From: a virus
Direction: 5' to 3' (one strand)
DNA: 44,440 nt
Virus record (IMG/VR): IMGVR_UViG_3300033064_002319
Span: 1-44,440 of that record
A program made the position numbers and the translations under genes. Below are positions 3,317 through 15,509 of the stretch, piece by piece; position 1 is the first letter of the stretch; each line of letters opens with the position of its first letter. Under the pieces are notes generated by a model. The model was not told the origin of the DNA. It ran no database searches and saw nothing but the letters and a program-made list of their open reading frames with translations.

Positions 3317-3321
3317 ATTTT

Positions 3322-3522
3322 TTAATTTGGTGATTTGTTTCCTACCAATTGATATGCATCCCACAATTGTCCTACTGCATATTCTATTTGAAACTTTATG
3401 TCTTTATCTGATTGTGCTAGTGGATGCTCTATACAATGGTCATTTAGTGTACATATTATAACATGCAATCTATCCATCAATTCTAAATAGTGTCCATCGT
3501 TTATTTCTATTTCGTTTTCCAT
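3322..3522 (-). CDS. Small hypothetical protein, 66 aa
   Basis: It starts MENEIEINDGHYLELMDRLHV and looks like one helical domain (LHVIICTLNDHCIEHPL...IEYAVGQLWDAYQLV). I prefer the ATG at 3522, which directly follows the TAA of the methyltransferase gene, over the 57-base longer start inside that gene. It ends five bases before the halogenase ATG, so it belongs to the same transcript. Its size and position would suit a small accessory subunit, but nothing proves that. Confidence 0.65.
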   Translation of the reverse strand: MENEIEINDGHYLELMDRLHVIICTLNDHCIEHPLAQSDKDIKFQIEYAVGQLWDAYQLVGNKSPN

Positions 3523-3523
3523 A

Positions 3524-4069
3524 TTATATTTGTTTTGCCCAACTAGCATCTTTAAATGTTGCATCAACTTTATCATCAAGTAATTCTACAATAGCCTTTC
3601 TAACACCATCCCATCCATAATCATGTCCACAAACAAATCCACCTGGCTTAATTAAAGTTTTGTAATGTTCTATATCATATGATACACCTTCGTATGTATG
3701 AAGCCCATCTATATAAACCATATCAAATTGCTGGTCTTTCAGTATATATAATGCGTTTTCAGATGTTTCTCTTATTGATTTTATATTAGGAATTGATAAT
3801 GTATTTGTTATAAATTGTTTATACACTTTATCAAATGGTGCGAAGCCGTTTGAAATAAAATCAAAATCAATATCATAATTAACAAAAGGGTCTACTGATA
3901 CTACTTCTTTAAATCTATCAGCAAATATCATAGTACTTTCACCAACATAACTACCTATTTCAATAATACGCATTTCTGATGTAGGTCTAATAGTATTTAT
4001 CCAATCAATCATATCAATCAATCCATCTGCGTAAAAGGGTGCTCTCATAATGTAAAACTCGTCTTTCAT
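3524..4069 (-). CDS. Class I SAM-dependent methyltransferase
   Basis: The Rossmann motif I is MRIIEIGSYVGEST (about 33-46), followed by an acidic residue after strand 2 (EVVSVDPF). FDMVYIDGLHTYEGV (about 115) matches the Methyltransf_24 family, often found in glycan or natural-product loci. The C-terminal LIKPGGFVCGHDYGWDGVRKAI is characteristic too. At 181 aa it is a minimal single domain. It lies between the nucleoside phosphorylase gene and the halogenase; the substrate cannot be inferred. Confidence 0.85.
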   Translation of the reverse strand: MKDEFYIMRAPFYADGLIDMIDWINTIRPTSEMRIIEIGSYVGESTMIFADRFKEVVSVDPFVNYDIDFDFISNGFAPFDKVYKQFITNTLSIPNIKSIRETSENALYILKDQQFDMVYIDGLHTYEGVSYDIEHYKTLIKPGGFVCGHDYGWDGVRKAIVELLDDKVDATFKDASWAKQI

Positions 4070-4074
4070 ATTTT

Positions 4075-4611
4075 TTATTTATCCAATGCTTTTAAAAATA
4101 ATTCAATCCCTTTATTATGATTTGTTTCCCAATCATCTGGGTTACCACTATCACTTATGTATTTATAAGCTGTAAAATCAAATCCATAAATTTTACATAC
4201 CTTTGCAATTGAATACGATTCCATATCATAAATAGATAATGGCTTCTTTTCAAATCTATCCTGTGTACAACAAGTTAATCCTTTACCAAATTCAATGGAT
4301 TCATTATTATCTAATTTGGGATATATTATATTATCAAAAGGCGTTACTGTTTCTTTGGTAAATGGTCTTGCATCCATATCTCTTTGAACAAATGTTTTAC
4401 ACTTAAATAAATGTCCAAGAAATGCGTCAGGTCCCCCCGCACTCCCATAGTTAATAATAATAGTATTCTTTGAGTCTAAATCTTTAAGAGTTTCGGTTGC
4501 TTTTATAGCGGCATTTACTTTACCAACGCCAGTATAAACCACATCAATTCCGTTTGGAACTAATTCTTTTGGTAATTCGGATGGTAATGCTACAAATAAT
4601 ATAACTTTCAT
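4075..4611 (-). CDS. Nucleoside phosphorylase / nucleosidase family protein
   Basis: The fold of the PNP/UDP (MTAN, futalosine hydrolase) family is visible: MKVILFVALPSELP at the start, the phosphate or ribose loop IINYGSAGGPDA (about 75), YDMESYSIAKVCKIYG (about 133), where the ME pair normally binds ribose, and YISDSGNPDDW, where an Asp normally protonates the purine. At 178 aa it is short for the family. The likely reaction is cleavage of a nucleoside or of methylthio/adenosyl-homocysteine. I set the start at 4611, because the longer frame runs into the tRNA-like gene at 4626. Confidence 0.82.
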   Translation of the reverse strand: MKVILFVALPSELPKELVPNGIDVVYTGVGKVNAAIKATETLKDLDSKNTIIINYGSAGGPDAFLGHLFKCKTFVQRDMDARPFTKETVTPFDNIIYPKLDNNESIEFGKGLTCCTQDRFEKKPLSIYDMESYSIAKVCKIYGFDFTAYKYISDSGNPDDWETNHNKGIELFLKALDK

Positions 4612-4625
4612 ACTTTTAAATTTTG

Positions 4626-4797
4626 CTGTGGTAACAGGATTCGAACCATGTAAGTGGAGATTCAATTAGTAACAAAGCGCTTGCAAGCCGGTGGTCTACC
4701 CCGATATTACTAATCTATTTCTTTATCCACGTCCGGGAGACAACCGGATGCGTTTGCCAAGGCCATAACAGAGACAGCCAATTTTCGCCATACCACA
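4626..4797 (-). tRNA. Interrupted tRNA-like gene, 172 nt
   Basis: The ends form a perfect 7-bp acceptor stem (TGTGGTA/TACCACA, G73), and a T arm with loop TTCGAAT precedes the 3' strand. The 5' part TATGGCGAAAATTGGC resembles a tRNA-Leu D arm. Between them are about 90 extra bases, including a 5-bp stem with 7-nt loop TTGTCTC (GUC in the anticodon place) and a second domain closed by TTAGTAA/TTACTAA with the loop CTTGCAA. This could be a tRNA with an intron, one tRNA inserted in another, or decay. The identity is not assigned. Confidence 0.45.
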
Positions 4798-4799
4798 AT

Positions 4800-5441
4800 T
4801 TATAGGAATTTAATTTCCTTTTCTTTAATACATTTATTTTTTAATGTTCCATATTTCTTAATTCCATAATGATTCATAGCTTCTAACATAGTATCAAATA
4901 TCTGACCTGTTTTCATATCTATTATTTTTTTAGCCATACCATTATTTTTGGAAAGATTTTTTCTTTTTATTTCAGAAAGTTCTTCACCATATATTTGTTC
5001 ATAGGTTTTTCCTTTGGTTGATGTATTACTACATTTTAATGAGTGCTCTTTTTTAGCATCATCGCCTAAAGAATTCCACCATTTTTTATATCCAATATGA
5101 GTCTTTGACATTCTGATATTTCGTTCTTCATCAGTTTCAACATACCCAATATGTGAACTATTTGTTTTATTATAATACTCCGGATTATTAGCTACATCTA
5201 TAAATCTTTGTATTTGGCTTTCAATCTTTCGTAATAAAGTATTTGATATATCTTCTTTAAATTCACATAATATTCTTTTTTCAAAATATTGCTTTCCCAA
5301 AGTTTTTATATCTTTTAATAATAATTTACTACTTCCTAAATATTCAGGCTTATTGTGTTGGTCACTTCCCAAATATTTGTAAGGTAATATATTATTTTCT
5401 TTATTATAAAGATTTATGGTTTCATAAATTATAGCACTCAT
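4800..5441 (-). CDS. GIY-YIG-type homing endonuclease, Seg-like
   Basis: The N-terminus (KYLGSDQHNKPEYLGSSKLLL, then FEKRILCEF) fits the divergent GIY-YIG domain of T4 Seg-like free-standing endonucleases. KGKTYEQIYGEE...IKRKNLS (about 145-170) is a NUMOD-like DNA-binding motif. KIIDMKTGQIFDTMLEAMNHYGIKK near the end is a NUMOD1-type helix-turn-helix. The stop is two bases before the 5' end of the interrupted tRNA-like gene, and the C-terminus looks slightly clipped. An 11-bp inverted repeat covers the region just upstream of the ATG. It probably promotes its own spread at the tRNA locus. Confidence 0.8.
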   Translation of the reverse strand: MSAIIYETINLYNKENNILPYKYLGSDQHNKPEYLGSSKLLLKDIKTLGKQYFEKRILCEFKEDISNTLLRKIESQIQRFIDVANNPEYYNKTNSSHIGYVETDEERNIRMSKTHIGYKKWWNSLGDDAKKEHSLKCSNTSTKGKTYEQIYGEELSEIKRKNLSKNNGMAKKIIDMKTGQIFDTMLEAMNHYGIKKYGTLKNKCIKEKEIKFL

Positions 5442-5484
5442 ACCCTTTTGTTTATTATAAATATATACTTTTTACAAAAGGGTA
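5441..5484 (-). promoter_or_regulatory. 11-bp inverted repeat over the endonuclease start
   Basis: On the minus strand TACCCTTTTGT (5474-5484) pairs perfectly with ACAAAAGGGTA (5441-5451) across a 22-nt AT-rich loop. The 3' arm holds AAAAGGG, the only ribosome-binding-like sequence, and its last base is the A of the ATG. In RNA this hairpin would hide the translation start, as known for some T4 homing endonuclease mRNAs. Confidence 0.55.
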
Positions 5485-5503
5485 CGTTTACTCATATTTT
5501 TTG

Positions 5504-5590
5504 CAGAGAGTTAGGGATTCGAACCCACGATACGCTTTCACGTATGCCGCATTTCAAGTACGGTCTCGTCAACCGCTTGAGTACGCTTCC
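5504..5590 (-). tRNA. tRNA-Ser(UGA), chimeric or degenerate
   Basis: The D arm (CTCAAGCGGTTGACGAG), anticodon loop CTTGAAA (UGA), long variable arm (ATACG/CGTAT) and T loop TTCGAAT are all of serine type. The acceptor strands GGAAGCG and ACTCTCT do not pair, and the two outer T-stem pairs are lost. The 3' end therefore seems to come from another tRNA joined at the conserved T loop. It may not be functional. Confidence 0.6.
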
Positions 5591-5599
5591 TTTATTCTA

Positions 5600-5863
5600 C
5601 TAATATATATGAGTTTCTTCATTTCTGAAAGTTTCCTTATCTAAGAAGGGAGCGGCTGCCTGTCTCCTTCTAGCTTCCTCTCCTTCTTTAACCATTCTAA
5701 TCCAAGTTAAAGATACATCAATCGGTGCTAATATCCAAGCCATAACCAATACCATAATGGCATCTAATTCAGGAGAACTATATTCAACTCCTCTTTGTTT
5801 GTATTTAACATTCAATTGGTAGAAACAATAGATAATACAAATTACATAATACGCAACTAACAT
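5600..5863 (-). CDS. Small membrane protein, 87 aa
   Basis: Two hydrophobic segments (about 2-18, YYVICIIYCFYQLNV, and about 35-53, AIMVLVMAWILAPIDVSL) flank a short polar loop. A charged tail with KEGEEARRRQAAA follows. It has its own promoter at 5885-5915 and lies between tRNA genes. It resembles no family I know; an inner-membrane phage protein is likely. Confidence 0.75.
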   Translation of the reverse strand: MLVAYYVICIIYCFYQLNVKYKQRGVEYSSPELDAIMVLVMAWILAPIDVSLTWIRMVKEGEEARRRQAAAPFLDKETFRNEETHIY

Positions 5864-5884
5864 AACTTTTATTTTTAATTTAAG

Positions 5885-5915
5885 TAAAGATACAATAATT
5901 ATTTCACATTACCAA
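5885..5915 (-). promoter_or_regulatory. Bacteroidota-type promoter for the 5600-5863 gene
   Basis: TTTGG with TTG at 5913-5915, 20 bases, then TATCTTTA (5885-5892). Start expected near 5878. Confidence 0.75.
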
Positions 5916-5923
5916 ATCTTTTG

Positions 5924-5994
5924 ATGCCATTCTAAGATTCGAACTTAAAATAACTCCGTCAAAGGGAGTTGTGTTACCGTTACACTAAATGGCA
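5924..5994 (-). tRNA. tRNA-Gln(UUG)
   Basis: Acceptor TGCCATT/AATGGCA pairs fully, the anticodon stem ACTCC/GGAGT encloses loop CTTTGAC (UUG), and the T loop is TTCGAAT. Confidence 0.9.
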
Positions 5995-5999
5995 ATAAT

Positions 6000-6070
6000 C
6001 TCAAGCATTCTGGCTCTCGCAACAGAGCTTCCATCTTATTTAACCCTACTGTGCGATACGGGTACTTGAG
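6000..6070 (-). other. tRNA-sized inverted-repeat element in the tRNA array
   Basis: This 71-nt block is closed by seven pairs (CTCAAGT with GCTTGAG, one G-U) and sits 5 bases from the tRNA-Gln 5' end, where a tRNA would be expected. I find no T loop and no convincing anticodon arm. It may be a decayed or very divergent tRNA. Confidence 0.35.
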
Positions 6071-6127
6071 TATTTGTGAATGAAAAACATCTATTCTTCT
6101 TGCGGCCTGTTCACAATGGCCCACTAG

Positions 6128-6199
6128 AGCGAGTAGCCGTAATCGAAACGGCGTATCCTACTTGGAAGGAAGGCATAATAACCACTATACTATACTCGC
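6128..6199 (-). tRNA. tRNA-Gly(UCC)
   Basis: Acceptor GCGAGTA/TACTCGC, anticodon loop CTTCCAA (UCC), T stem GCCGT/ACGGC with loop TTCGATT. Confidence 0.9.
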
Positions 6200-6209
6200 A
6201 TTTTTGTTT

Positions 6210-6285
6210 TGGTGGACCAGGTAGGACTCGAACCTACAATCTACTGATTATGAGTCAGGTGCTTCAACCATTAAGCTACAAGTCC
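6210..6285 (-). tRNA. tRNA with CAU anticodon (elongator Met or Ile-CAU), CCA encoded
   Basis: Acceptor GGACTTG/CTGGTCC has one mismatch; the anticodon loop is CTCATAA (CAU) and the T loop TTCGAGT. The 3' ACCA is encoded (6210-6213), which most tRNAs here lack. It could be Met or lysidine-modified Ile; sequence alone does not decide. Confidence 0.85.
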
Positions 6286-6288
6286 ATT

Positions 6289-6349
6289 TTGGAAAACCGA
6301 TATAGGCAACTTTAAGTGCGATGATGCACACCTAATCATTGCTTTCCAA
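6289..6349 (-). other. Armless tRNA-like element, 61 nt
   Basis: A perfect 7-bp closing stem (TTGGAAA/TTTCCAA) and an inner stem-loop (GTGC-ATCATC-GCAC) fill the slot between the CAU tRNA and the tRNA-Leu-like gene. There is no TTCGA T loop. It has tRNA spacing but not a full cloverleaf. Confidence 0.3.
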
Positions 6350-6355
6350 ATAAGG

Positions 6356-6471
6356 TGCCGGAGGAAGTATTGATTAACTTCACGGGGTCCTTTTCGGTCA
6401 CCCCACCACTTCGAATTAGGCACGTCTCAATGTGATTCGTCAATCTACATTGTTTATTCCGCCACTCCGGC
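6356..6471 (-). tRNA. tRNA-Leu-like gene with a hairpin inserted in the D loop, 116 nt
   Basis: Acceptor GCCGGAG/CTCCGGC pairs perfectly with A73. TGGCGGAAT starts a leucine-type D arm and a long variable arm (GGGGT...ACCCC) is present. The D loop carries about 26 extra bases that form a hairpin (AATGT/ACATT and GATT/AATC around GACG). The T stem GAAGT/ACTTC has an unusual 8-nt loop, and the anticodon is unclear (TCG is the best-placed triplet). Function doubtful. Confidence 0.5.
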
Positions 6472-6479
6472 ATATTTCT

Positions 6480-6653
6480 TTAATCTTTTAATTCATTAAT
6501 AAGACTATCTATCATATCATCACCTAAAGAAATTTGGTGTAGTTTTTTTACTTTTAGATAGTTTTCTAAATACATTGATGCAGTTACTACCTTGTCACCT
6601 TTTTGTATCTCTATTTTAATGATACCACTTTCATTTGTTAATTCATTTTCCAT
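6480..6653 (-). CDS. Small hypothetical protein, 57 aa
   Basis: It starts MENELTNESGIIKIEIQKGDKV and ends in a charged helix (DDMIDSLINELKD). The same frame is open up to an ATG at 6752. I chose 6653 because it has the A-rich AAATAGTTATG leader usual for this genome, and because the DNA before it repeats the spacer that follows the next tRNA (6898-6958), so it is probably not coding. Function unknown. Confidence 0.55.
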   Translation of the reverse strand: MENELTNESGIIKIEIQKGDKVVTASMYLENYLKVKKLHQISLGDDMIDSLINELKD

Positions 6654-6771
6654 AACTATTTGTTTTTTTAATAAGGTTGTAATGTCTGTACGGTTTGTGT
6701 CCGGGCTTGCCCAAGTTTCCATTTCATTCTTAGCGTCTGTTCCGTCATTCATTTCTGAATCATTACAATTG

Positions 6772-6843
6772 TGGAGGATACCGGATTCGAACCGATGTAT
6801 CTTACGTGCAAGGCAAGTGCTAAACCAACTCAGCTAATCCCCC
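6772..6843 (-). tRNA. tRNA-Ala(UGC)
   Basis: Acceptor GGGGGAT/ATCCTCC (one G-U), A73, anticodon loop CTTGCAC (UGC), T loop TTCGAAT. Confidence 0.92.
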
Positions 6844-6958
6844 AAAAATAATGTAACGGCTGTACTGTTAAACTGTCTTTTCACTACCTTTATCGTAGTG
6901 TTTCGTTTTCTTCATACTTAGCGTCTGTCCAGTCATTTGTTTCCAAATCGTTACACCG

Positions 6959-7042
6959 TACCAAAGATGGGACTCGAACCCACACAAGCTTTCAGCTTAC
7001 AGCATTTTAAGTGCTGCGTGTCTACCATTCCACCACTTCGGC
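6959..7042 (-). tRNA. tRNA-Leu(UAA)
   Basis: Acceptor GCCGAAG/CTTTGGT pairs with G-U wobbles. The anticodon stem CAGCA/TGCTG holds CTTAAAA (UAA). A type II variable arm and T loop TTCGAGT are present. The promoter at 7054-7084 would start transcription just before its 5' end. Confidence 0.9.
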
Positions 7043-7053
7043 ATTTAACTATA

Positions 7054-7084
7054 CAAATATACGAAAAGTTTTTATCTTATCCTA
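7054..7084 (-). promoter_or_regulatory. Promoter for the tRNA-Leu(UAA) block
   Basis: TTAGG variant of the -33 element (TAG at 7082-7084), 20 bases, TATATTTG (7054-7061). Start expected near 7047, five bases before the tRNA. Confidence 0.7.
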
Positions 7085-7508
7085 ATTTGTTTTTCTTTTC
7101 TACTCTAAACATTTTTATCTTTCTAAGTTTTGTATGCTTATCTGATGGATTAATAAGAATGTCAATTTTATTTTTCCAACGATGATGCATCAAATCTCTA
7201 ATTGTGTAAATACCATTGTACTTACCAGCTCCTTCTATTCTAACCTTCTGTCCAAATTTGTACTTACGTTTCAAATCTCTACTAACTGCTATGATACGAT
7301 GTCCTCTAGGGTTATTAGGATTAATCTTAAACCCACTTGCGGTTATCAATGGAGTTGAATCCGTTTGGGCTTCAGTTACCGAATACGTTGTTACAGTTAC
7401 AATATCAGGCTCAATACCTTTAATCTCCATTTCGATTTCCTTCTCCATCATATTAATTTCCATTGGTAGGATAAATAATATGAAAGATAAAATTACATTT
7501 GCATTCAT
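7077..7508 (-). CDS. Secreted 3D-domain (double-psi beta-barrel) protein
   Basis: The first 18 residues (MNANVILSFILFILPMEI) look like a signal peptide or anchor. The C-terminal half has the 3D-domain pattern known from MltA/RpfB-type cell-wall enzymes: TASGFKINP, RIIAVSRDL, KFGQKVRIEGAGKYNGIYTIRDLMHHRWKNKIDIL. The D of TIRDLM and the later D of KIDIL are two of the conserved aspartates. A role in peptidoglycan cutting or lysis is likely but unproven. It lies between tRNA genes and ends against the promoter at 7054-7084. Confidence 0.75.
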   Translation of the reverse strand: MNANVILSFILFILPMEINMMEKEIEMEIKGIEPDIVTVTTYSVTEAQTDSTPLITASGFKINPNNPRGHRIIAVSRDLKRKYKFGQKVRIEGAGKYNGIYTIRDLMHHRWKNKIDILINPSDKHTKLRKIKMFRVEKKNKLG

Positions 7509-7534
7509 AACATTTTGTTTTAAAGTTTTTAATG

Positions 7535-7608
7535 TGATTCGGATTGGATTCGAACCAATGACCCCAAACTTAGAAGGTTTGTGCTCTATCCAGCTGAGCT
7601 ACCGAACC
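7535..7608 (-). tRNA. tRNA-Arg(UCU)
   Basis: Acceptor GGTTCGG/CCGAATC, anticodon loop CTTCTAA (UCU), T loop TTCGAAT, A73. Confidence 0.93.
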
Positions 7609-7612
7609 ATTG

Positions 7613-7686
7613 CGGAATGTATGGGACTCGAACCCATGACCTCATCCGTGACAGGGATGCATTCTAACCAACTGAACTAACACTCC
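7613..7686 (-). tRNA. tRNA-Asp(GUC)
   Basis: Acceptor GGAGTGT/ACATTCC, anticodon stem CATCC/GGATG with loop CTGTCAC (GUC), G73, T loop TTCGAGT. Confidence 0.93.
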
Positions 7687-7691
7687 AACTG

Positions 7692-7764
7692 AGCCTCCTG
7701 TCGGATTCGAACCAACGACCTACGCTTTACAAAAGCGTTGCTCTACCAGTTGAGCTAAGGAGGC
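7692..7764 (-). tRNA. tRNA-Thr(UGU), overlapped by a homing endonuclease ORF
   Basis: Acceptor GCCTCCT/AGGAGGC, anticodon stem ACGCT/AGCGT with loop TTTGTAA (UGU), T loop TTCGAAT. The last 14 codons of the endonuclease ORF (stop at 7720) lie in its 5' half. Confidence 0.93.
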
Positions 7765-8508
7765 GTATTTTAATTTACTATTTCTATTGTTACCAATTCC
7801 GGCACATTTTCTAGAACAATAAACACTTTTTTCTTTACAACTATTTCCACATAATTTACATTTGCCTGTAAGTTGTTTATATGGGTTTCCTTCATATAGT
7901 TTAATAAAATCCTTTCCGTATTTATTTTCAACATACTCAAATTCTATATTCAAATCTTGTCTAAAAAGTATCTTAAGATTTGGTACGGATTGTAGTTTAG
8001 CCTTAACTTGCCCATCAACATATCCTTTTATTTCAATTATATCACCATATTTGATAAAATCCGGTATGTATTCTCTAATAACACCTTTCCATTCATACGA
8101 AAACCTTTGCTTATTTCGTTCAAATGGAATATTATGGTCGAACTGATATATAACCCAAGCTAATTCATAGCTACTATCACACCATATACCATTATACCAC
8201 CCACTCTTACCAATACCAGCTCCTCTACGATATCCACCAGATGCCTTTAGCCAACATTCGGAATGGTATTGTTTTGGTTGAGTTTTTCTATGTTTAATAT
8301 CACCACTACAATATTGGCATTTACTAACTACCCAATCCACAGTAGTATATTGTTTACCTTTATTCCAAGATGTATTTCCTTTATTTGCTAAACTCTTTTT
8401 AAGTTTAGTTTCATCTGAAAATACTCTACTATTTGCACATGCTCTACTACAATACTTACCACTTCCAAAAGAGCCATCATGCTCATTATTACATTTTATA
8501 CATTTCAT
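7720..8508 (-). CDS. Homing endonuclease with PD-(D/E)XK-like nuclease domain
   Basis: A CxxC...C zinc finger (CIKCNNEHDG...YCSRAC) opens the protein, then a NUMOD3-like segment. The nuclease core is DSSYELAWVIYQFDHNIPFERN...REYIPDFIKYGDIIEIKGY (about 105-155), the E...PDF...EIKG pattern of PD-(D/E)XK/Vsr-like phage homing enzymes. A second zinc finger follows (CKLCGNSC...YCSRKC). The final SLAQLVEQRFCKA is tRNA-Thr read as protein, so the ORF ends inside that tRNA. This suggests the element inserted at the tRNA 5' end. Confidence 0.82.
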   Translation of the reverse strand: MKCIKCNNEHDGSFGSGKYCSRACANSRVFSDETKLKKSLANKGNTSWNKGKQYTTVDWVVSKCQYCSGDIKHRKTQPKQYHSECWLKASGGYRRGAGIGKSGWYNGIWCDSSYELAWVIYQFDHNIPFERNKQRFSYEWKGVIREYIPDFIKYGDIIEIKGYVDGQVKAKLQSVPNLKILFRQDLNIEFEYVENKYGKDFIKLYEGNPYKQLTGKCKLCGNSCKEKSVYCSRKCAGIGNNRNSKLKYASLAQLVEQRFCKA

Positions 8509-8565
8509 ACATATAAGTATAATCGAACTTATTTTTTAATCGTGTTTTATACAATTATTTTTGGT

Positions 8566-8637
8566 ATTCCGGACGGGCCACGATCCCGCAATCTCCACTG
8601 TGAAAGAGTGGCGACTTAACCAATTTGTCCACCGGAA
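8566..8637 (-). tRNA. tRNA-Glu(UUC) with unusual T loop
   Basis: Acceptor TTCCGGT/TCCGGAA-type pairing (six pairs), anticodon stem CCACT/AGTGG with CTTTCAC (UUC). The T loop is ATCGTGG rather than TTCGAAT, which is odd. Confidence 0.82.
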
Positions 8638-8670
8638 CATCTATGTTATCCATTATTTCAAAGAACATAT

Positions 8671-8701
8671 CAAATATACGAAAAATTTCTCATATTTCCA
8701 A
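8671..8701 (-). promoter_or_regulatory. Promoter for the tRNA-Glu block
   Basis: TTTGG (TTG at 8699-8701), 20 bases, TATATTTG (8671-8678). Confidence 0.75.
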
Positions 8702-8711
8702 ATCATTTTTG

Positions 8712-8800
8712 CGGAGAATGTTGGATTCGAACCAACGGTACAACTTTCATCGTACAACGGTTTAGCAAACCGGCCCCATCGTCCACTCGGGCAATTCTCC
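8712..8800 (-). tRNA. tRNA-Ser(GCU)
   Basis: Acceptor GGAGAAT/ATTCTCC, G73, loop TTGCTAA (GCU), long variable arm (GTAC...GTAC), T loop TTCGAAT. Confidence 0.92.
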
Positions 8801-8804
8801 TTTT

Positions 8805-8877
8805 GGGTGTAAGGACGGTATCGAACCGTCTTATCTAGCTCCACAAACTAGCGCTTCACCTTAAAGCTTCAAACACC
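8805..8877 (-). tRNA. tRNA-His(GUG)
   Basis: Anticodon stem CTAGT/GCTAG with loop TTGTGGA (GUG), C73, T stem GACGG/CCGTC with loop TTCGATA. The acceptor has mismatches near its base. Confidence 0.88.
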
Positions 8878-8889
8878 ATATCAACATTA

Positions 8890-8920
8890 CAAATATACAA
8901 AAAAATTATTAATAATCCTA
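8890..8920 (-). promoter_or_regulatory. Promoter for the tRNA-His/Ser block
   Basis: TTAGG variant (TAG at 8918-8920), 20 bases, TATATTTG (8890-8897), six bases before the expected start. Confidence 0.7.
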
Positions 8921-8927
8921 ATACTTT

Positions 8928-9383
8928 TTATCCTTTCACTAAGTGGTCAGCTGCATATGTTGCAATTGGACCTAATGATTTATATCTTACTTCATATCCC
9001 ATTCCCTCTACCATACCAACTGCTTGTCTGAATACTTCATTTGATTTATATCTTGGGTCAGGGTTCAAATCAATATCAATCCACTTTGGTTTTTTAATAC
9101 CAGCTTCTCTCATAAATTCTGCAGTTTCAACAGCGTACCATACTTCATTTAATAAACGGATTGAACGAGTGAATTCTCTTTCAGTTTTCCATTTACGATA
9201 TAGAACGTGTGCCCCTTTACCTGGTTTGTATAAGGCAACTACAATAGCGTATGTAGTTTTTTCTCCCTGATTTTGTGAGTCACATCCAATTAGTATTTCA
9301 ACCTCATTATTAAGGTCCATATACTCTTTGATATACTCATTTAAGTCAACTTCAATGCCTGAATACAATTTCTTATAAACCAT
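8928..9383 (-). CDS. DUF458 (YkuK-like) RNase H-fold protein
   Basis: The first strand motif EILIGCDSQNQGEKTTYAIVVALYKPGKG (about 30-58) and the later IDIDLNPDPRYKSNEVFRQAVGMV (about 105) match the DUF458 family, which has an RNase H-like fold with candidate metal-binding aspartates (GCDSQ, DLNPD). At 151 aa it is full length for the family. Biochemical activity is unknown. Its position inside a tRNA array would fit a nucleic-acid role, which is inference. Confidence 0.8.
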   Translation of the reverse strand: MVYKKLYSGIEVDLNEYIKEYMDLNNEVEILIGCDSQNQGEKTTYAIVVALYKPGKGAHVLYRKWKTEREFTRSIRLLNEVWYAVETAEFMREAGIKKPKWIDIDLNPDPRYKSNEVFRQAVGMVEGMGYEVRYKSLGPIATYAADHLVKG

Positions 9384-9406
9384 AATTTTGTTTTTAATTG
9401 TTAATG

Positions 9407-9479
9407 TACCCGTAATAGGAGTCGAACCTATAAATTTCAGTTTCTAAAACTGCTGCCTATCCCATTCGGCTATACGGGT
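9407..9479 (-). tRNA. tRNA-Leu(UAG) with short variable loop
   Basis: Acceptor ACCCGTA/TACGGGT, D stem GCC/GGC, loop TTTAGAA (UAG), a 5-nt variable loop, and T stem ATAGG/CCTAT with TTCGACT. Bacterial tRNA-Leu normally has a long variable arm, so this class I form is unusual. The stop of the HNH ORF lies in its acceptor stem. Confidence 0.82.
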
Positions 9480-9910
9480 GTTTTTTTATGATGATTTGGT
9501 ATTAGTGAATGACAATTTGGACAAAGTATTTTTAAATTTGATAAATCGTTATTATAATGATTACAGTCTATATGATGTAGTTCCAATACAATTTTTTTAC
9601 CCATCCATTCACTAGTTCCACAATCCTCACATTCATCTTTTTTTATACCATCTTCTATCAATTTTTTCCTAAGTCTTGGATTACTTATATGTTTATCCGA
9701 ATTCAAATATTCAATTGCTGTTTTTCTAACTTTTGATTTTTTGTATCCCCTTTCACCCTGATTACCTACATATATAATATTCCATTTTTTTAGATAAGAA
9801 TTTAATGTATCTATTTTACACACCAATTGTGTAGCTATCCAATTTTTTGTTCTATTTTCACTAATCCATTTTTCAATTTCAGATTTTCTAGTTGTTATAT
9901 CAGTTCTCAT
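9470..9910 (-). CDS. HNH homing endonuclease
   Basis: The N-terminal 60 residues look like a helix-turn-helix targeting domain (ISENRTKNWIATQLVCKIDTL). The C-terminus has a zinc HNH: CEDCGTSEW, LELHHIDCNHYNNDLSNLKILCPNCH. Both CxxC pairs and the HH and N of HNH are present. The stop is inside tRNA-Leu(UAG). A cut-off tRNA-Leu 5' half lies upstream at 9953-9986, so the gene seems to have interrupted a tRNA locus. Confidence 0.88.
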   Translation of the reverse strand: MRTDITTRKSEIEKWISENRTKNWIATQLVCKIDTLNSYLKKWNIIYVGNQGERGYKKSKVRKTAIEYLNSDKHISNPRLRKKLIEDGIKKDECEDCGTSEWMGKKIVLELHHIDCNHYNNDLSNLKILCPNCHSLIPNHHKKTPV

Positions 9911-9952
9911 AATAATGTATGTTTTATATAAATATCATACACATTGAAAAAA

Positions 9953-9986
9953 CGATAATAGTGTCTACCAATTCCACCATTCGGGT
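9953..9986 (-). pseudogene. Truncated tRNA-Leu 5' half
   Basis: The sequence ACCCGAATGGTGG then AATTGGTAGACAC is the acceptor and D arm of a type II tRNA-Leu. It stops at TATTATCG and runs into T-rich DNA before the HNH gene. No matching 3' half (TTCGGGT) is nearby, so this is a remnant. Confidence 0.6.
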
Positions 9987-9991
9987 ATTTG

Positions 9992-10063
9992 TTGCGTAAG
10001 ATAGAATCGAACTATCACTCTTTGGTTTATGAATCCAATGCTTTACCATTAAGCTACTACGCA
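9992..10063 (-). tRNA. tRNA-Met(CAU)
   Basis: Acceptor TGCGTAG/TTACGCA, loop TTCATAA (CAU) on stem TTGG/CCAA, T loop TTCGATT. It is the second of three CAU tRNAs; Ile-CAU is possible. Confidence 0.88.
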
Positions 10064-10068
10064 GTTTG

Positions 10069-10139
10069 AGGTCAGTATTGGATTTGAACCAATGTGAATG
10101 GTTTTGCAGACCATCTCCTCGCCTCTCGGACAACTGACC
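10069..10139 (-). tRNA. tRNA-Cys(GCA)
   Basis: Acceptor GGTCAGT/ACTGACC, U73 as expected for Cys, anticodon stem ATGGT/ACCAT with CTGCAAA (GCA). Confidence 0.93.
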
Positions 10140-10145
10140 ATATTG

Positions 10146-10217
10146 TAGTCCCTAAAGGATTCGAACCTTTACTTCTTCATCCGTAGTGAAGGGTGCTATC
10201 CGTTACACCAAAGAACC
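10146..10217 (-). tRNA. tRNA-Arg(ACG)
   Basis: Acceptor GGTTCTT/AGGGACT with several wobbles, anticodon stem CTTCA/TGAAG with CTACGGA (ACG), T loop TTCGAAT. A34 would need host TadA to become inosine. Confidence 0.88.
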
Positions 10218-10223
10218 AATTTG

Positions 10224-10294
10224 CACGCAGTGAAGGAATCGAACCCTCTCGTAAAGATTTGGAGTCTTTTTAGCTGCCATAGCCTACCACGCGT
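10224..10294 (-). tRNA. tRNA-Trp(CCA)
   Basis: Anticodon stem AAAGA/TCTTT with CTCCAAA (CCA), T loop TTCGATT, G73. The acceptor ACGCGTG/ACTGCGT has two mismatches at its base. Confidence 0.85.
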
Positions 10295-10298
10295 TTGT

Positions 10299-10370
10299 TG
10301 GAATATGTGGATTCGAACCACAGACATTTGACGTATCAGGTCAACGCTCTAACCAGCTGAGCTATATTCC
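10299..10370 (-). tRNA. tRNA-Ile(GAU)
   Basis: Acceptor GGAATAT/ATATTCC, anticodon stem TTGAC/GTCAA with CTGATAC (GAU), A73. Confidence 0.94.
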
Positions 10371-10376
10371 AATAAG

Positions 10377-10417
10377 TGGTGGATGTATGCTCATCACATA
10401 CTATTGGGTTTCCACCA
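10377..10417 (-). other. Armless tRNA-like hairpin, 41 nt
   Basis: TGGTGGA/TCCACCA (7 bp, ending CCA) encloses a 5-bp stem with a 7-nt loop (GTATG-TGATGAG-CATAC). It fills the slot between tRNA-Ile and tRNA-Pro with tRNA-like spacing. It lacks D and T arms, and the loop lacks U33. Confidence 0.35.
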
Positions 10418-10426
10418 AACCCCTAG

Positions 10427-10501
10427 TAGGGTAAGAAGGACTCGAACCTTCACGATGTCTTGCTCCCAAAGCAAGCGGCCTAGCCATTGGCCCATTACCC
10501 T
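10427..10501 (-). tRNA. tRNA-Pro(UGG)
   Basis: Acceptor AGGGTAA/TTACCCT, anticodon stem CTTGC/GCAAG with TTTGGGA (UGG), T loop TTCGAGT. Confidence 0.93.
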
Positions 10502-10507
10502 ATATTG

Positions 10508-10588
10508 TGGGAGTGGAGGGATTCGAACCCCCAATGTTGTAAAACCACAGATTTACAGTCTGCTAAGCAACCGTTGCTCAACACTCCC
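10508..10588 (-). tRNA. tRNA-Tyr(GUA)
   Basis: Acceptor GGGAGTG/CACTCCC, anticodon loop CTGTAAA (GUA), type II variable arm, T loop TTCGAAT, A73. Confidence 0.94.
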
Positions 10589-10621
10589 AAATTTTCCACA
10601 ATGTCAAAGAACCCCAAAAAC

Positions 10622-10652
10622 AAAAAACCCCTAACTTTTTGAGTTAGAGGTC
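10622..10652 (-). terminator. Rho-independent terminator
   Basis: On the minus strand CCTCTAAC/GTTAGGGG forms an 8-bp stem around TCAAAAA, followed by TTTTTTG. It ends the transcript of the 52-aa gene, so the tRNA-Tyr side must be read by readthrough or a weak promoter. Confidence 0.8.
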
Positions 10653-10679
10653 TTTCTATGATGATGAGTAAAAATATAT

Positions 10680-10838
10680 TTACCAACCTGAAGCTTCCTC
10701 TAACCCTGTACTAATATAATCCACCTTGCCTAAATTTGCCTGTGCCGGATTACTAAACGTACTGAACATACGAATCCCACACCATTCATTTCTCAATGTA
10801 GGTTGCGAACAATTTGTATGTAGTGTTAAAGTTTTCAT
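10680..10838 (-). CDS. Small hypothetical protein, 52 aa
   Basis: The ORF starts MKTLTLHTNCSQPTLRNEWC and ends LEEASGW, with ATG at 10838 and TAA at 10680. Its codons look like real coding DNA. It lies between the long non-coding RNA region and a terminator 28 bases downstream, and its leader carries a TACTTATTATAA motif. Two cysteines may pair or bind metal. No family recognised. Confidence 0.6.
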   Translation of the reverse strand: MKTLTLHTNCSQPTLRNEWCGIRMFSTFSNPAQANLGKVDYISTGLEEASGW

Positions 10839-10904
10839 CTTTGTTGTTATAATAAGTATATAATAATTTTATTTTCCGAATCTTTGTTAGTTTTTATCAG
10901 GCTT

Positions 10905-11945
10905 AAATCGGGGATGTCAGAGTGACACCCCCTTTTCAAGTTGTAATAAAAATTAAGATATGAAAACAATCTTTCGATTGAAATCGCTTTCTCTATTGGA
11001 ATCGAACCAACACTAACCATTGAGAAAATAAGATAAGGATGAGAATACTCCATATTGTGAACCAGCTTTAGAAAGATTATTTGTTTCCTTTCGTTTCCAC
11101 TTCCTTTTGAGAAGTACCGATTCAATGTGGGTTGATATAGTCAACCAATCTTAGAGTTACAAACTACTCTCTTTTTACTTATTTTCTTCTACCCTGCCGA
11201 GCAGATTAGCACCTCGCGATGTTAGAAACCTTTCGAAAGAATCACCATTCCTTTGAGGGGTTTGGTGGCAGGGAACAGCTCCCTACTATGTACACACCTT
11301 TCATTTGCAACTGATGAACACTTTTTCAGATTTTTAATTGTAGTTTTTACACCAAAGTAAAAATGAGTTTTGGTTCGTAGATGGATTCAGGTAGTGGTTC
11401 ATCACCAGCTTCGTTATCTTTTGAACAACGAAATACTATACTACCCGATGCGTTATCTCAACGCCATATTTCAAGTCATCTTCAATAGAAGGGATTGGTG
11501 TCCCATTCTAAAGGATAGTAACGCCACCACGCGTACACAGTCTTAACTTACGTCCTTTCGGATAGCTTGTTTATCAAGACCACTTTAATATTGAATCACG
11601 CAATAGTAAAAAGGGATTAGCTTTCTATATCTTACATAAATTCTATGAGTTATTCTTATCGTTGTTCCCAACTCAACTGAACAATCTACATTTGCTCAGC
11701 CATCCCAACTCTTCTGCTACAGTGTTACCCTCACATACAAAGCCAGAACGATATCTCACTTGCCTACTCAAGCTCATAACCTTACAGGGTTGTGAACCGC
11801 AAAACATTTAACCAAATGTTTCACTTTATCCTACTTTCGTAGTTTATTTGACGACCATAGGCGGCCATTGTACACTATGTAACACGAGGTTACTTTGTGT
11901 AATAATTTCAATAATTTAAAGAACTTTTCAGAACTTGCTTCTGAT
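10905..11945 (-). ncRNA. Giant structured non-coding RNA, GOLLD/ROOL-like candidate
   Basis: About 1 kb without a credible ORF follows the promoter at 11951-11981. On the minus strand it is full of local stems: four GNRA hairpins (CTAC-GAAA-GTAG, ATCC-GAAA-GGAC region, CATC-GCGA-GGTG, CAATC-GAAA-GATTG), AAACATTT-GGTT-AAATGTTT, GTCTTGA...TTAAGAC, a long-range CCCTGCC...GGCAGGG, and a T-arm-like domain (10987-11029, loop TTCGATT). A 10-bp hairpin at 10910-10932 closes the 3' side. It looks richer in G and C than nearby coding DNA. Giant RNAs of this type (GOLLD, ROOL) are known from phages beside tRNA genes. The family assignment is inference; the ends are approximate. Confidence 0.6.
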
Positions 11946-11950
11946 TTTTA

Positions 11951-11981
11951 TAAAGATACGAAACTTTTTTCATTATTCCAA
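11951..11981 (-). promoter_or_regulatory. Promoter of the giant ncRNA
   Basis: TTTGG (TTG at 11979-11981), 20 bases, TATCTTTA (11951-11958). The start would be near 11945, with no ORF downstream for about 1.1 kb. Confidence 0.75.
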
Positions 11982-11999
11982 ATCTTTTTACAAATATTT

Positions 12000-12098
12000 T
12001 TTAAAAATGTTATTAAGGTGTCCGGCTTTTCCTCCACCTTCCTAATAGGGAAGGTCACACAATCGGTTTTATTAGTTGTTGGCTTCAACCTTAATAAC
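12000..12098 (-). ncRNA. Hairpin small RNA with its own promoter
   Basis: GTTATTAAGGT (12088-12098) pairs perfectly with ACCTTAATAAC (12009-12019), enclosing ACCTTCC/GGAAGGT (7 bp, 6-nt loop). The 3' end runs into ATTTTTAA. The promoter at 12103-12133 would start it at about 12097, the first base of the stem. No ORF lies inside. It fits a stable RNA of about 90-100 nt. Confidence 0.55.
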
Positions 12099-12102
12099 TT
12101 TA

Positions 12103-12133
12103 TAAAGATACGAAATGTTTTTCAATATTCCTA
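12103..12133 (-). promoter_or_regulatory. Promoter of the hairpin RNA
   Basis: TTAGG variant (TAG at 12131-12133), 20 bases, TATCTTTA (12103-12110). Confidence 0.65.
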
Positions 12134-12158
12134 ATATTTTTTACAAATATTTTTTTTG

Positions 12159-12230
12159 TAGCGGATGATAGATTCGAACTACCGACCTTATGGTTATGAG
12201 CCACACGAGCTACCACTGCTCTAATCCGCG
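12159..12230 (-). tRNA. tRNA-fMet(CAU), initiator
   Basis: Acceptor CGCGGAT/ATCCGCT leaves C1 and U72 unpaired, the initiator hallmark. The D arm AGAGCAGTGGTAGCTC is initiator-like, the anticodon loop is CTCATAA, the T loop TTCGAAT and A73. It has its own promoter (12272-12302) and a dyad element upstream. Confidence 0.88.
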
Positions 12231-12271
12231 ATATAATTTTAAAGAACTATCTTATTAATTTCTTAACTTTA

Positions 12272-12302
12272 TAAAGATACAAAAATAATTTCAATCCGCC
12301 AA
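12272..12302 (-). promoter_or_regulatory. Promoter of tRNA-fMet, head of the RNA region
   Basis: TTTGG (TTG at 12300-12302), 20 bases, TATCTTTA (12272-12279). Confidence 0.75.
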
Positions 12303-12320
12303 ATCTTTTTTAATAAATGT

Positions 12321-12360
12321 GGATAACTTTTTTAAGTCATTGAAAATCAATGAGTTATCC
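12321..12360. repeat. Repeated dyad (locus B)
   Basis: AAGTCATTGA-aaa-TCAATGAGTT (12334-12356) is nested in an outer repeat GGATAACT (12321-12328) / AGTTATCC (12353-12360). It starts 19 bp upstream of the -33 element of the tRNA-fMet promoter. Confidence 0.7.
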
Positions 12361-12393
12361 GTATTAGACATTTAATTCTTTGATAAATAGAGA

Positions 12394-13920
12394 TTATTTA
12401 TTTTTTTCCGTTTTAATAAATTTTATAAATTCATTATGAGTTATAAAATTCTTAGTATGTTTATAATAGTGATGCATCATCTTATCAAAATTTTGCTCAG
12501 AATCATTGTGTAAATCATTACCCCACAATGTATTACACGCAATTCTTTTTTGTAAAATTCCTAATCCACTTACAACATTTGACCAAGTACCCCATCCAGC
12601 CGCTCCAATAATATTATCAAAATCGAATGGTGATGGGCATTTATATTTACATATTTCAATTATTTCTTTAACTTTATCAGTTTTAGGCATTTCGTTATTA
12701 ACCCATTTCCAAAAATCACTATCTTCTCTTTTTGTTATATAATGTATTTGAATCAAATCCCTATAACTATCAAATATTTTTGAGAATGCTAAATTGTATT
12801 TATTAATATTTGTTTCAAAGATTGTTTCATACGAATCAATACCTAAATACATAGTTGTAAATATTTCCAATTGCATTATAGTTGAATGTATCGATGTTGC
12901 TTCCATTGGTTCTAAAAAATTTGAAGATAACCCAACAGCCATTACATTATTAATCCAAACTCTTTCTTGTCTACCGGGATCAAAACTTATTATTCTAACT
13001 GGTTCTATTTTTCTACCTGTTATCCTTTGTACTTCCTCTAACGCTTGTTCATCTGTTATAAACTTATCCGAATACACATATCCACATCCGTATCTTTCTT
13101 GTGTTGGTATCTGCCACATCCACCCATTTGGCATTGCCCAAGCTAAAGTTTCCGGTTTTATAGTTTCATTTTCTTCATACTCATACAAATACGGCATTGC
13201 TTTGTTACATGGCAGATAGTCAGAATAACTTTTCCACTTACCACCAACCGAATTTATTAAAGTTTTATTAAACCCAGTACAATCAAACCACATATCAGAT
13301 AATATTGTATTCCCATTATCTAAAGTTAGTGCTACCAAATTCCCACTCTCATCAACATCAGTTTCAACTACGTCAGCTTGAATACATTCTACACCATTTT
13401 GTAATGCCACTTCTTTGAAATATTCTCCAACTTTATGTGCATCAAAATGATAACCATATCCACCAGAAATATCATTAAAACTTGCCGAATGAAATGGTAC
13501 AGTATTTACATCCCAAGGTATTCCCATTGGTGATGATAAATAAGATGATTCATGTGCAGTTGCCAAAATATAATCAAAATCTATCGCAGTTAGTGTACTT
13601 GTACTTGATGGTTGTAGTGGTACTTTAAATTCAGTACCATCTCCATTCCAATCTTTACAATTCAATCCCAATTTAATTGTTGCGTTGGTTTTTTTAAAAA
13701 ATTCAGTTTGATTTAATCCTTTTAGATTTTTTAAATTCTTTTTAAGCATGGAATATAACGATGCGGTAGAACCTTCACCTGCTCCAATAATTGGAATATT
13801 CTTGCTTTCTATTACAGTTATTTGATATGGGGTTTGCCCATCCTTTCTTATATTCTTATTAGCAAGGTACATAGCGGATATCCATCCAGCAGTACCTGCT
13901 CCAACTATAACAATTTTCAT
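12394..13920 (-). CDS. Flavin-dependent tryptophan halogenase, copy 2
   Basis: Full length (508 aa). FAD motif GAGTAGW (7-13), Lys83 in TIKLGLNCKDW at the catalytic lysine position, GWMWQIP signature, WFDCTGFNKTL and FLEPMEATSIHSTIMQL in the C-terminal half. It is a paralogue of the 1802-3316 enzyme, clearly diverged over most of its length but identical in DNA for 94 bp around the signature (13059-13152). The gene upstream on the same strand encodes a Tyr/Trp/Gly-rich virion-like protein. It is the last gene before the RNA region. Confidence 0.93.
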   Translation of the reverse strand: MKIVIVGAGTAGWISAMYLANKNIRKDGQTPYQITVIESKNIPIIGAGEGSTASLYSMLKKNLKNLKGLNQTEFFKKTNATIKLGLNCKDWNGDGTEFKVPLQPSSTSTLTAIDFDYILATAHESSYLSSPMGIPWDVNTVPFHSASFNDISGGYGYHFDAHKVGEYFKEVALQNGVECIQADVVETDVDESGNLVALTLDNGNTILSDMWFDCTGFNKTLINSVGGKWKSYSDYLPCNKAMPYLYEYEENETIKPETLAWAMPNGWMWQIPTQERYGCGYVYSDKFITDEQALEEVQRITGRKIEPVRIISFDPGRQERVWINNVMAVGLSSNFLEPMEATSIHSTIMQLEIFTTMYLGIDSYETIFETNINKYNLAFSKIFDSYRDLIQIHYITKREDSDFWKWVNNEMPKTDKVKEIIEICKYKCPSPFDFDNIIGAAGWGTWSNVVSGLGILQKRIACNTLWGNDLHNDSEQNFDKMMHHYYKHTKNFITHNEFIKFIKTEKNK

Positions 13921-14786: not shown

Positions 14787-15509
14787 TTATTTTTTATTCA
14801 TCATTTGTACCAATGACATTGCATTCTTTTTAACAGGTGCACCATCTTGGTATTTTAATGCGGATTGTACTTTTATATCTCTACCGGTTTCAGGATTTCT
14901 TACGGTTTTATTTAGAATATCTTTTGGTAACATTTTAATTAATTTATCATCTCTTTCAGCAGATGATCCTGATAGATTTGGTAAATTTCTTTGTGTACCT
15001 GTTTTTCTCTGAAATGCGAATACTTTTCCAGTATTTCTCATCTTAGAATATGCTTGTTGCATATTATCAGGATGCATATCTCCCACATTTTCTACTCTAC
15101 CATTTTTATAAACAAGAACTCCTTTTCCTTTTGTATCTTCACCACCATATAAAACTGAATCCTGTTCAAATTGTTTTCCTAATTTATGAATTTGTTTAAT
15201 TCCTATATTTGGAACAAACAATGATATTTCAGTTGAATCTACTAATTTATCTTTTGGACAATCAAAGTAATTTACTCTCTTATCTTGACACTCTTGCCAA
15301 TGTCCTTCCATTTCAAAAAACCCCAACTTTTCGGCTCTTATTTTGTCTGCTAAGTTTTTATTTGCTAATTTATTTTCCGCAGGTGTGTTACCATATCTGT
15401 AAGCAGTTACAACTCCCCAACTTTTTACATTCTTTTTTCCTTGAATATGTTGGAGAACCCTTCCTAAAGAAGCTTCTGTTAATTTTACTACTCTACACTC
15501 TTTTTCCAT
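14787..15509 (-). CDS. Conserved phage hypothetical protein, 240 aa
   Basis: The N-terminal half has VVTAYRYGNTPAENKLANKNLADKIRAEKLGFFEMEGHWQEC, which resembles DUF3293-like phage proteins, followed by ISLFVPNIG and DSVLYGGED. The C-terminus is basic (RDIKVQSALKYQDGAPVKKNAM). It overlaps the 15488-15721 gene by 22 bases. A metabolic or anti-defence role is equally open. Confidence 0.75.
   Translation of the reverse strand: MEKECRVVKLTEASLGRVLQHIQGKKNVKSWGVVTAYRYGNTPAENKLANKNLADKIRAEKLGFFEMEGHWQECQDKRVNYFDCPKDKLVDSTEISLFVPNIGIKQIHKLGKQFEQDSVLYGGEDTKGKGVLVYKNGRVENVGDMHPDNMQQAYSKMRNTGKVFAFQRKTGTQRNLPNLSGSSAERDDKLIKMLPKDILNKTVRNPETGRDIKVQSALKYQDGAPVKKNAMSLVQMMNKK

What the first reader, a model, noticed from the sequence alone, without database searches (positions are those of the whole stretch)
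10905..11945. About 1 kb of dense RNA structure without genes beside the tRNA array: a possible GOLLD/ROOL-type giant RNA
A Bacteroidota-type promoter at 11951-11981 is followed by about 1.1 kb with no credible ORF. The minus strand shows four GNRA-tetraloop hairpins, several 6-10 bp stems, a long-range 7-bp pairing (CCCTGCC/GGCAGGG) and a T-arm-like domain with TTCGATT. GOLLD and ROOL are known giant RNAs that lie beside phage tRNA genes. I cannot tell whether this is a divergent member or a new class; a giant RNA in this phage group would be notable either way.
Basis: partly seen in the sequence, partly recalled or inferred. Interest (0 to 1): 0.85.

Follow-up and report, generated by a model that had tools for sequence, protein, structure and literature searches.

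The report
Phage GOLLD RNA with tRNA-like tail
The gene-free kilobase encodes GOLLD, a known giant cage-forming phage RNA, and it ends in a stripped-down tRNA mimic that probably marks where the RNA is cut; similar unannotated mimics lie between the genes of many unrelated phages.

Summary
Rfam's GOLLD model covers 11448-11036 (minus strand) end to end at 288.5 bits (cut-off 150, E 1.4e-81). In 28 relatives the whole ~870-nt RNA, including the 5' domain outside the Rfam model, has 257 consensus pairs. Of these, 138 carry compensatory changes, against 38-51 in slid controls. The proposed long-range CCCTGCC/GGCAGGG pairing is not supported.

The 'T-arm-like domain' is the new part. It is a 40-nt tRNA mimic without an anticodon arm (11027-10988), 9-14 nt after the GOLLD 3' end. 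In 30 of 32 clade members this spot holds a tRNA, a pseudo-tRNA or this mimic; most other GOLLDs have terminator-like hairpins there. Its acceptor stem covaries. The same element occurs in unrelated phages between genes, for example ten copies in Mycobacterium phage Cuke, mostly 7-9 nt after a stop codon. It has no Rfam match, and I found no description of it in the papers searched. Inferred role: an RNase P site that cuts the GOLLD 3' end and phage mRNAs.

Upstream (12098-12009) lies a second covarying RNA, also absent from Rfam and also intercistronic elsewhere. Transcription, cleavage and caging are untested.

The parts
11951..11982 (-). Bacteroidota-type promoter of GOLLD (TTTG-N20-TATCTTTA)
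   Evidence: promoter-like sites just upstream of GOLLD in relatives
11028..11943 (-). GOLLD RNA, inferred transcript from promoter to tRNA-like element
   Evidence: the ends are inferred, not measured
11449..11943 (-). GOLLD 5' (cap) domain, outside the Rfam model
   Evidence: covarying helices, e.g. 11824-11813/11810-11799 (7 compensatory pairs) and 11700-11692/11684-11676 (7 compensatory pairs)
11036..11448 (-). GOLLD conserved 3' domain (Rfam RF02032, model 1-416)
   Evidence: 288.5 bits, E 1.4e-81
10988..11027 (-). tRNA-like element without anticodon arm: 6-bp acceptor stem TTTCTC/GAGAAA, linker with ATGGTT, 5-bp T stem, TTCGATT loop
10963..10980 (-). GNRA hairpin CAATC-GAAA-GATTG followed by TTTT; possible weak terminator
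   Evidence: direct reading; fold
10910..10932 (-). strong hairpin GGGGGTGTCA-CTC-TGACATCCCC; possible transcript end
   Evidence: direct reading; fold
12009..12098 (-). second structured RNA ('TAAT-ACCG' motif), about 90 nt, between tRNA-Met and GOLLD
   Evidence: no Rfam match
12158..12230 (-). tRNA-Met that begins the RNA island
5503..10588 (-). tRNA array (20 further tRNA genes) downstream of GOLLD

Best explanation
The region encodes a GOLLD RNA of a large phage, probably of Bacteroidota. It is transcribed towards the tRNA array from its own promoter at about 11951 and folds into a covarying 5' domain and the conserved GOLLD 3' domain; by homology it should assemble into the 14-subunit RNA cage. 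Instead of ending at a terminator, as most GOLLDs do, the transcript runs into a tRNA-like element made only of an acceptor stem, a GG-bearing linker and a T arm. RNase P most likely cuts just before this element (about 11028/11027) and so sets the GOLLD 3' end, the job that a real tRNA does in sister phages. The same element lies between genes in other phages and would cut their multi-gene messages in the same way. Shown: GOLLD identity and fold, the covarying tRNA-like element, its fixed position after GOLLD, and its intercistronic position elsewhere. Inferred: promoter activity, RNase P cleavage, cage assembly, host.
For: Rfam GOLLD 288.5 bits over the full model. Covariation along the whole RNA in 28 relatives. 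tRNA-like element: 14 clade sequences 100% paired, 4 acceptor pairs with compensatory changes, 18 such cells versus 4.9 shuffled. Of 127 viral sites found by loop and T-arm letters only, 50 also have a 6-bp acceptor stem; shuffled mean 1.5, maximum 5. After GOLLD: 12 mimics, 10 pseudo-tRNAs, 5 tRNAs and 3 tRNA-Gly with an inserted D loop among 32 clade members, against 34 of 48 terminator-like in other GOLLDs (three of the four rows printed as 'other' were assigned by eye). In phage Cuke 8 of 10 copies start 7-9 nt after an annotated stop, and 8 of 10 end 42-50 nt before the next CDS. [quoted passage not shown]
Against: No transcript or cleavage data. No CCA is encoded. In a 101-nt fold the mimic competes with a downstream hairpin and is not the minimum-energy structure, although such folds ignore the D-loop/T-loop contact. 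Several pseudo-tRNAs at the same spot have lost the TTC T loop, so strict RNase P recognition is not proven there. One clade member (L434) has none of these elements. RNase P action on the intercistronic copies is argued from shape only.
Confidence: 0.7

Rival explanations
1. Plain GOLLD followed by a decaying tRNA gene: the T-arm-like piece is a remnant of the tRNA-Gly that follows GOLLD in sister phages and has no function.
For: It sits exactly where sister phages have tRNA-Gly or pseudo-tRNA-Gly, and tRNA genes in phage arrays are gained and lost often.
Against: Its acceptor stem keeps pairing through compensatory changes. Near-identical elements sit between genes in phages where no tRNA was found nearby and recur with fixed spacing in phage Cuke. 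Decay would not conserve ATGGTT, the T arm and six paired acceptor bases together.
Confidence: 0.12
2. The tRNA-like element is cargo or a handle, not a processing site: it stays attached to GOLLD and is displayed by the RNA cage, or binds EF-Tu, the CCA-adding enzyme or another tRNA-binding protein.
For: GOLLD linkers sometimes carry tRNAs, and cargo in the cage has been suggested (PMC12286853). Acceptor-T-arm halves bind several tRNA enzymes (established knowledge).
Against: The element is outside the 3' domain, not in the interior linker, and the same element lies in ordinary intercistronic gaps of phages with no GOLLD in the held region. A shared processing role explains both settings.
Confidence: 0.15
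3. It is not GOLLD but a new giant RNA class or ROOL.
For: The 5' domain lies outside the Rfam model, so a hybrid was conceivable.
Against: Full-length Rfam GOLLD match and no ROOL match. The pan-GOLLD 5' homology begins at the same base (about 11867) in many distant GOLLD loci.
Confidence: 0.01
4. Protein-coding region.
For: A 92-aa TTG-start frame exists at 10847-11125.
Against: No Pfam match; that frame covers the 3' end and the tRNA-like element, which covary as RNA.
Confidence: 0.01

Closest known systems
GOLLD RNA (Rfam RF02032; env-38 cryo-EM cage, PMC12286853)
   Same: Full 3' domain, covarying 5' domain, tRNA-island setting, phage genome; tRNA-Met upstream, as reported for env-38.
   Different: The 3' end abuts an anticodon-less tRNA mimic; in most other GOLLDs examined here a terminator-like hairpin follows.
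Minimal RNase P substrates (acceptor stem + T stem + T loop model hairpins, reviewed in PMC11143913)
   Same: Same parts: acceptor helix stacked on a T arm with a TTC loop.
   Different: Natural and genome-encoded, with a D-loop-like GG linker and one unpaired position; no CCA; cleavage untested.
mascRNA / MALAT1 tRNA-like 3' end (human)
   Same: A large non-coding RNA whose 3' end is thought to be set by a downstream tRNA-like fold (known from general knowledge; not examined in detail here).
   Different: Eukaryotic and unrelated in sequence; mascRNA is a longer tRNA-like fold than this 40-nt element.
tRNA-like domain of tmRNA
   Same: Acceptor stem, D loop without a stem, T arm, no anticodon.
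   Different: No mRNA domain, no tag peptide, no P2 helix; Rfam gives no tmRNA match in the window.
tRNA punctuation of mitochondrial transcripts
   Same: tRNA folds between genes used as cut sites.
   Different: Here the elements are not functional tRNAs and lie in phage operons.

Membership tests
GOLLD RNA | Scores above the Rfam RF02032 cut-off over the full model | tested here: met
   288.5 vs 150 bits, model 1-416
GOLLD RNA | Separate, structured 5' domain, total length over 800 nt | tested here: met
   About 916 nt from promoter to tRNA-like element; covarying helices from 11900 to 11450. The transcript itself was not measured.
GOLLD RNA | Phage or prophage location beside a tRNA island | tested here: met
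   21 tRNAs on the same strand; virus record
GOLLD RNA | Homo-14-mer cage | not testable with these tools
   Needs cryo-EM or mass photometry
GOLLD RNA | Expression rises at lysis | not testable with these tools
   No transcriptome
ROOL RNA | Rfam ROOL match | tested here: not met
   No hit at gathering level in the window; none at E<=1 for 10600-12400
tRNA (for the 10988-11027 element) | Anticodon arm and recognition by ARAGORN or Rfam tRNA | tested here: not met
   No anticodon arm; no call by ARAGORN or Rfam at E<=10
RNase P substrate (for the same element) | About 12-bp stacked acceptor/T helix with T loop | tested here: met
   6 + 1 unpaired + 5 positions, TTCGATT loop
RNase P substrate (for the same element) | 3' RCCA that aids bacterial RNase P | tested here: not met
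   GCGATT follows; no CCA encoded
RNase P substrate (for the same element) | Actual cleavage | not testable with these tools
   Needs in vitro assay or 5'/3' RACE
tmRNA | tRNA-like domain plus mRNA-like domain | tested here: not met
   No tmRNA hit in the window

The most novel reading that the evidence does not exclude
The 40-nt element after GOLLD belongs to an undescribed, widespread family of anticodon-less tRNA mimics that phages place between genes as RNase P cut sites. They would turn multi-gene messages into single-gene ones and, in this clade, release the giant GOLLD RNA. A second new intercistronic RNA motif sits just upstream of GOLLD.
Probability: 0.55. Interest if true: 0.82.

Novelty: new variant of a known kind. 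Interest (0 to 1): 0.6.

Why it matters
GOLLD cages are known in structure but not in how the RNA is made or what it does. A conserved tRNA or tRNA mimic directly at the 3' end gives a testable maturation route and a precise end to build constructs on. The wider result may matter more: a tRNA mimic of this shape, absent from Rfam and from the annotation of an isolated phage (Cuke), sits between genes with fixed spacing in unrelated phages. If RNase P cuts there, phages have a tRNA-punctuation system like that of mitochondria, testable in M. smegmatis. A second structured RNA with 53 diverse members and strong covariation also lacks an Rfam family.

Tried and rejected
ROOL, OLE and tmRNA: no Rfam hits. 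Long-range CCCTGCC/GGCAGGG pairing: replaced by two local covarying hairpins. Coding: no. Gene-specific riboswitch for the upstream 90-nt RNA: rejected as the main idea because downstream genes are diverse (uvsX/RecA-like in many, radical SAM-like, helicase-like and others; these names are my reading of the sequences). Chance or selection bias for the tRNA-like element: its discovery pattern fixed only loop and T-arm letters, and the acceptor stem was tested against shuffled partners; reversed sequences gave 0 hits against 97. The statistics on alignment A3 are circular, because its rows were chosen for pairing, and are not used as proof. The same pattern in bacterial and archaeal genomes is mostly not this element (10 of 114), so it is enriched in viruses. 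Literature: ten searches of the open PMC set found no description of phage intercistronic tRNA mimics; most subscription papers and bioRxiv preprints were not searchable, so prior description cannot be excluded. Naming the phage: whole-genome relatives are uncultured; one protein is closest to Chryseobacterium phage MA9V-3 (34%).

Full report
1. The observation. The minus strand of 10905-11945 holds no credible gene and a dense RNA fold. A Bacteroidota-type promoter, TTTG-N20-TATCTTTA, lies at 11982-11951. The bare pattern occurs 14 times in the window (7.2 expected), but 10 of the 14 are on the coding strand, and relatives have a promoter-like site just upstream of GOLLD.

2. What it is. Rfam's GOLLD model (RF02032) matches 11448-11036 end to end with 288.5 bits against a cut-off of 150. 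Nothing else in 10600-12400 reaches E 0.01 except the tRNA-Met at 12159-12230. Rfam models only the conserved 3' domain. The 5' domain, 11943-11449, was tested by aligning 28 full-length sequences of the clade (the window and 27 relatives of 71-85% identity): 257 consensus pairs, 96.4% of cells paired, 138 pairs with changes on both sides. Sliding the partners by 1-3 columns gives 38-51 such pairs and 39-47% pairing. So the whole RNA is under selection for structure.

3. How GOLLD is thought to work. Cryo-EM of GOLLD env-38 shows a 14-subunit hollow RNA cage with the 5' domains as caps and the 3' domains as rings (PMC12286853). Function is unknown; expression rises during phage lysis. The window GOLLD should form such a cage by homology. 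This was not testable here.

4. The 3' end. It is a complete small element, 11027-10988: acceptor stem TTTCTC/GAGAAA, one unpaired A-A, a linker with ATGGTT (like the GG of a D loop), and a 5-bp T stem with the loop TTCGATT. There is no anticodon arm. ARAGORN and Rfam do not see it. It starts 9-14 nt after the last conserved GOLLD bases (TCTCA) in every clade member that has it. Acceptor sequences in the clade are TTTCTC/GAGAAA, TTTCTC/GAGAGA, TATCAT/ATGATA, TATCTA/TAGATA and TTTTAC/GTAAAA: all pair, four pairs have compensatory changes, and 100% of cells are paired against 34-58% when slid. These rows were located by the GOLLD 3' end and the AATGGTT/TTCGA letters, not by pairing.

5. The same spot in relatives. 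Of 32 close GOLLDs, 12 carry this element, 10 a pseudo-tRNA (AGCGG...CCGCT ends, in several cases with a lost TTC loop), 5 a tRNA that ARAGORN accepts, and 3 (scored 'other' by the script and assigned by eye) a tRNA-Gly with a D-loop insert; one has none and one a terminator-like hairpin. Of 48 other GOLLDs, 34 have terminator-like hairpins, 4 a tRNA-Met, 8 none of these, and 2 are short clade fragments with the element. A tRNA fold is therefore nearly always kept after GOLLD in this clade while the ability to decode is lost. That argues for a role in processing rather than translation.

6. The element beyond GOLLD. Of 127 sites, 50 have a 6-bp acceptor stem; pairing 5' and 3' flanks from different sites gives 1.5 on average and at most 5. 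In bacterial and archaeal genomes it is 10 of 114. Reversed sequences give none. In the loci held, these elements sit between genes: of 45 with a same-strand upstream ORF, 21 lie within 18 nt of its stop. One contig is the isolate Mycobacterium phage Cuke: ten copies in a gene row, 8 of 10 starting 7-9 nt after an annotated stop and 8 of 10 ending 42-50 nt before the next CDS, none annotated. Two fall inside annotated CDS starts (gp043, gp044), which may be mis-set.

7. Mechanism. [quoted passage not shown] The element has just these parts plus the D-loop GG. The simplest reading is that RNase P cuts before it, giving the GOLLD 3' end here and separating messages elsewhere. Weak points: no CCA is encoded, local folding in the window competes with a downstream hairpin, and some pseudo-tRNAs lack the T loop.

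8. A second RNA. Between tRNA-Met and GOLLD, at 12098-12009, lies a 90-nt RNA with invariant letters TAATAAAACCGA and AAGCCGGA inside covarying stems. Over 53 diverse sequences, 12 pairs are 97.4% paired with a covariation score of 0.815, against 0.08-0.14 when slid. The two invariant strings were part of the search pattern, so their invariance is by selection; the stems were not. It has no Rfam match up to E 10 that is better than chance. It occurs once in each of the 16 GOLLD-clade records tested; four further records picked up by an unspecific DNA pattern lack it. In many marine phages it too is intercistronic, about 10 nt after a stop and about 18 nt before the next start, with diverse downstream genes. 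Function unknown; a processing or message-protecting element, possibly a ribozyme, is more likely than a riboswitch.

9. Verdict. A true GOLLD (known kind), with a tRNA-mimic 3' end that I have not found described. Identity is near certain; the processing role is inferred.

Noticed in passing
window 12009-12098 (-); 53 loci in alignment A1: New structured RNA ('TAAT-ACCG' motif): two covarying stems around TAATAAAACCGA and AAGCCGGA; no Rfam match; one copy in each of 16 GOLLD-clade phage records, and intercistronic (often before uvsX/RecA-like genes) in marine phages.
   Followed up: yes
L546, L548 (Mycobacterium phage Cuke NC_048696, 30010-37391): Ten unannotated anticodon-less tRNA-like elements in one gene row, most starting 7-9 nt after stop codons and ending 42-50 nt before the next CDS.
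   Followed up: yes
L007, L013, L056, L107, L113, L264 and others, between tRNA-Met and GOLLD: Further short promoter-driven RNAs in relatives, e.g. with the core AACTTATAGGTGATGAAAGATACTCGGTATTC; they look like a modular island of small RNAs.
   Followed up: partly
L013, L070, L084, L113, L241, L291, L302 right after GOLLD: Pseudo-tRNA-Gly with intact acceptor stem but altered T loop and odd anticodon loop.
   Followed up: partly
L225, about 2500-13000 (-): About 15 tRNA-like copies, many sharing a similar acceptor stem (TGGCACG/AGTGCCA), in one 180-kb phage record that also has a HEARO RNA; perhaps a repeat family.
   Followed up: no
L007, L056, L303 etc., downstream of the tRNA-like element: Conserved non-coding stretches (GTAATTTATCGAGGCTTGTATTAACCGGAGCATGACTTGACGTGGCG; TTCGTAGTGGTTT...) before the tRNA array; may be further RNAs.
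   Followed up: no
window 10680-10838 (-): Small ORF (MKTLTLHTNCSQPT...) just downstream of GOLLD; DNA similar to this stretch occurs in several relatives; no Pfam match.
   Followed up: partly
window 12394-13920 and 1802-3364 (-): Two tryptophan halogenase genes in one phage fragment.
   Followed up: no
window 14787-15509 (-): S-adenosylmethionine lyase-family protein (Pfam PF23780), a possible anti-restriction gene.
   Followed up: no
L003, L010, L013, L015, L188: tmRNA genes close to GOLLD in other phages.
   Followed up: no
L352 (contig labelled Candidatus Bathyarchaeota): Three of the tRNA-like elements within 500 nt on a contig binned as archaeal; possibly an archaeal virus or a binning error.
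   Followed up: no
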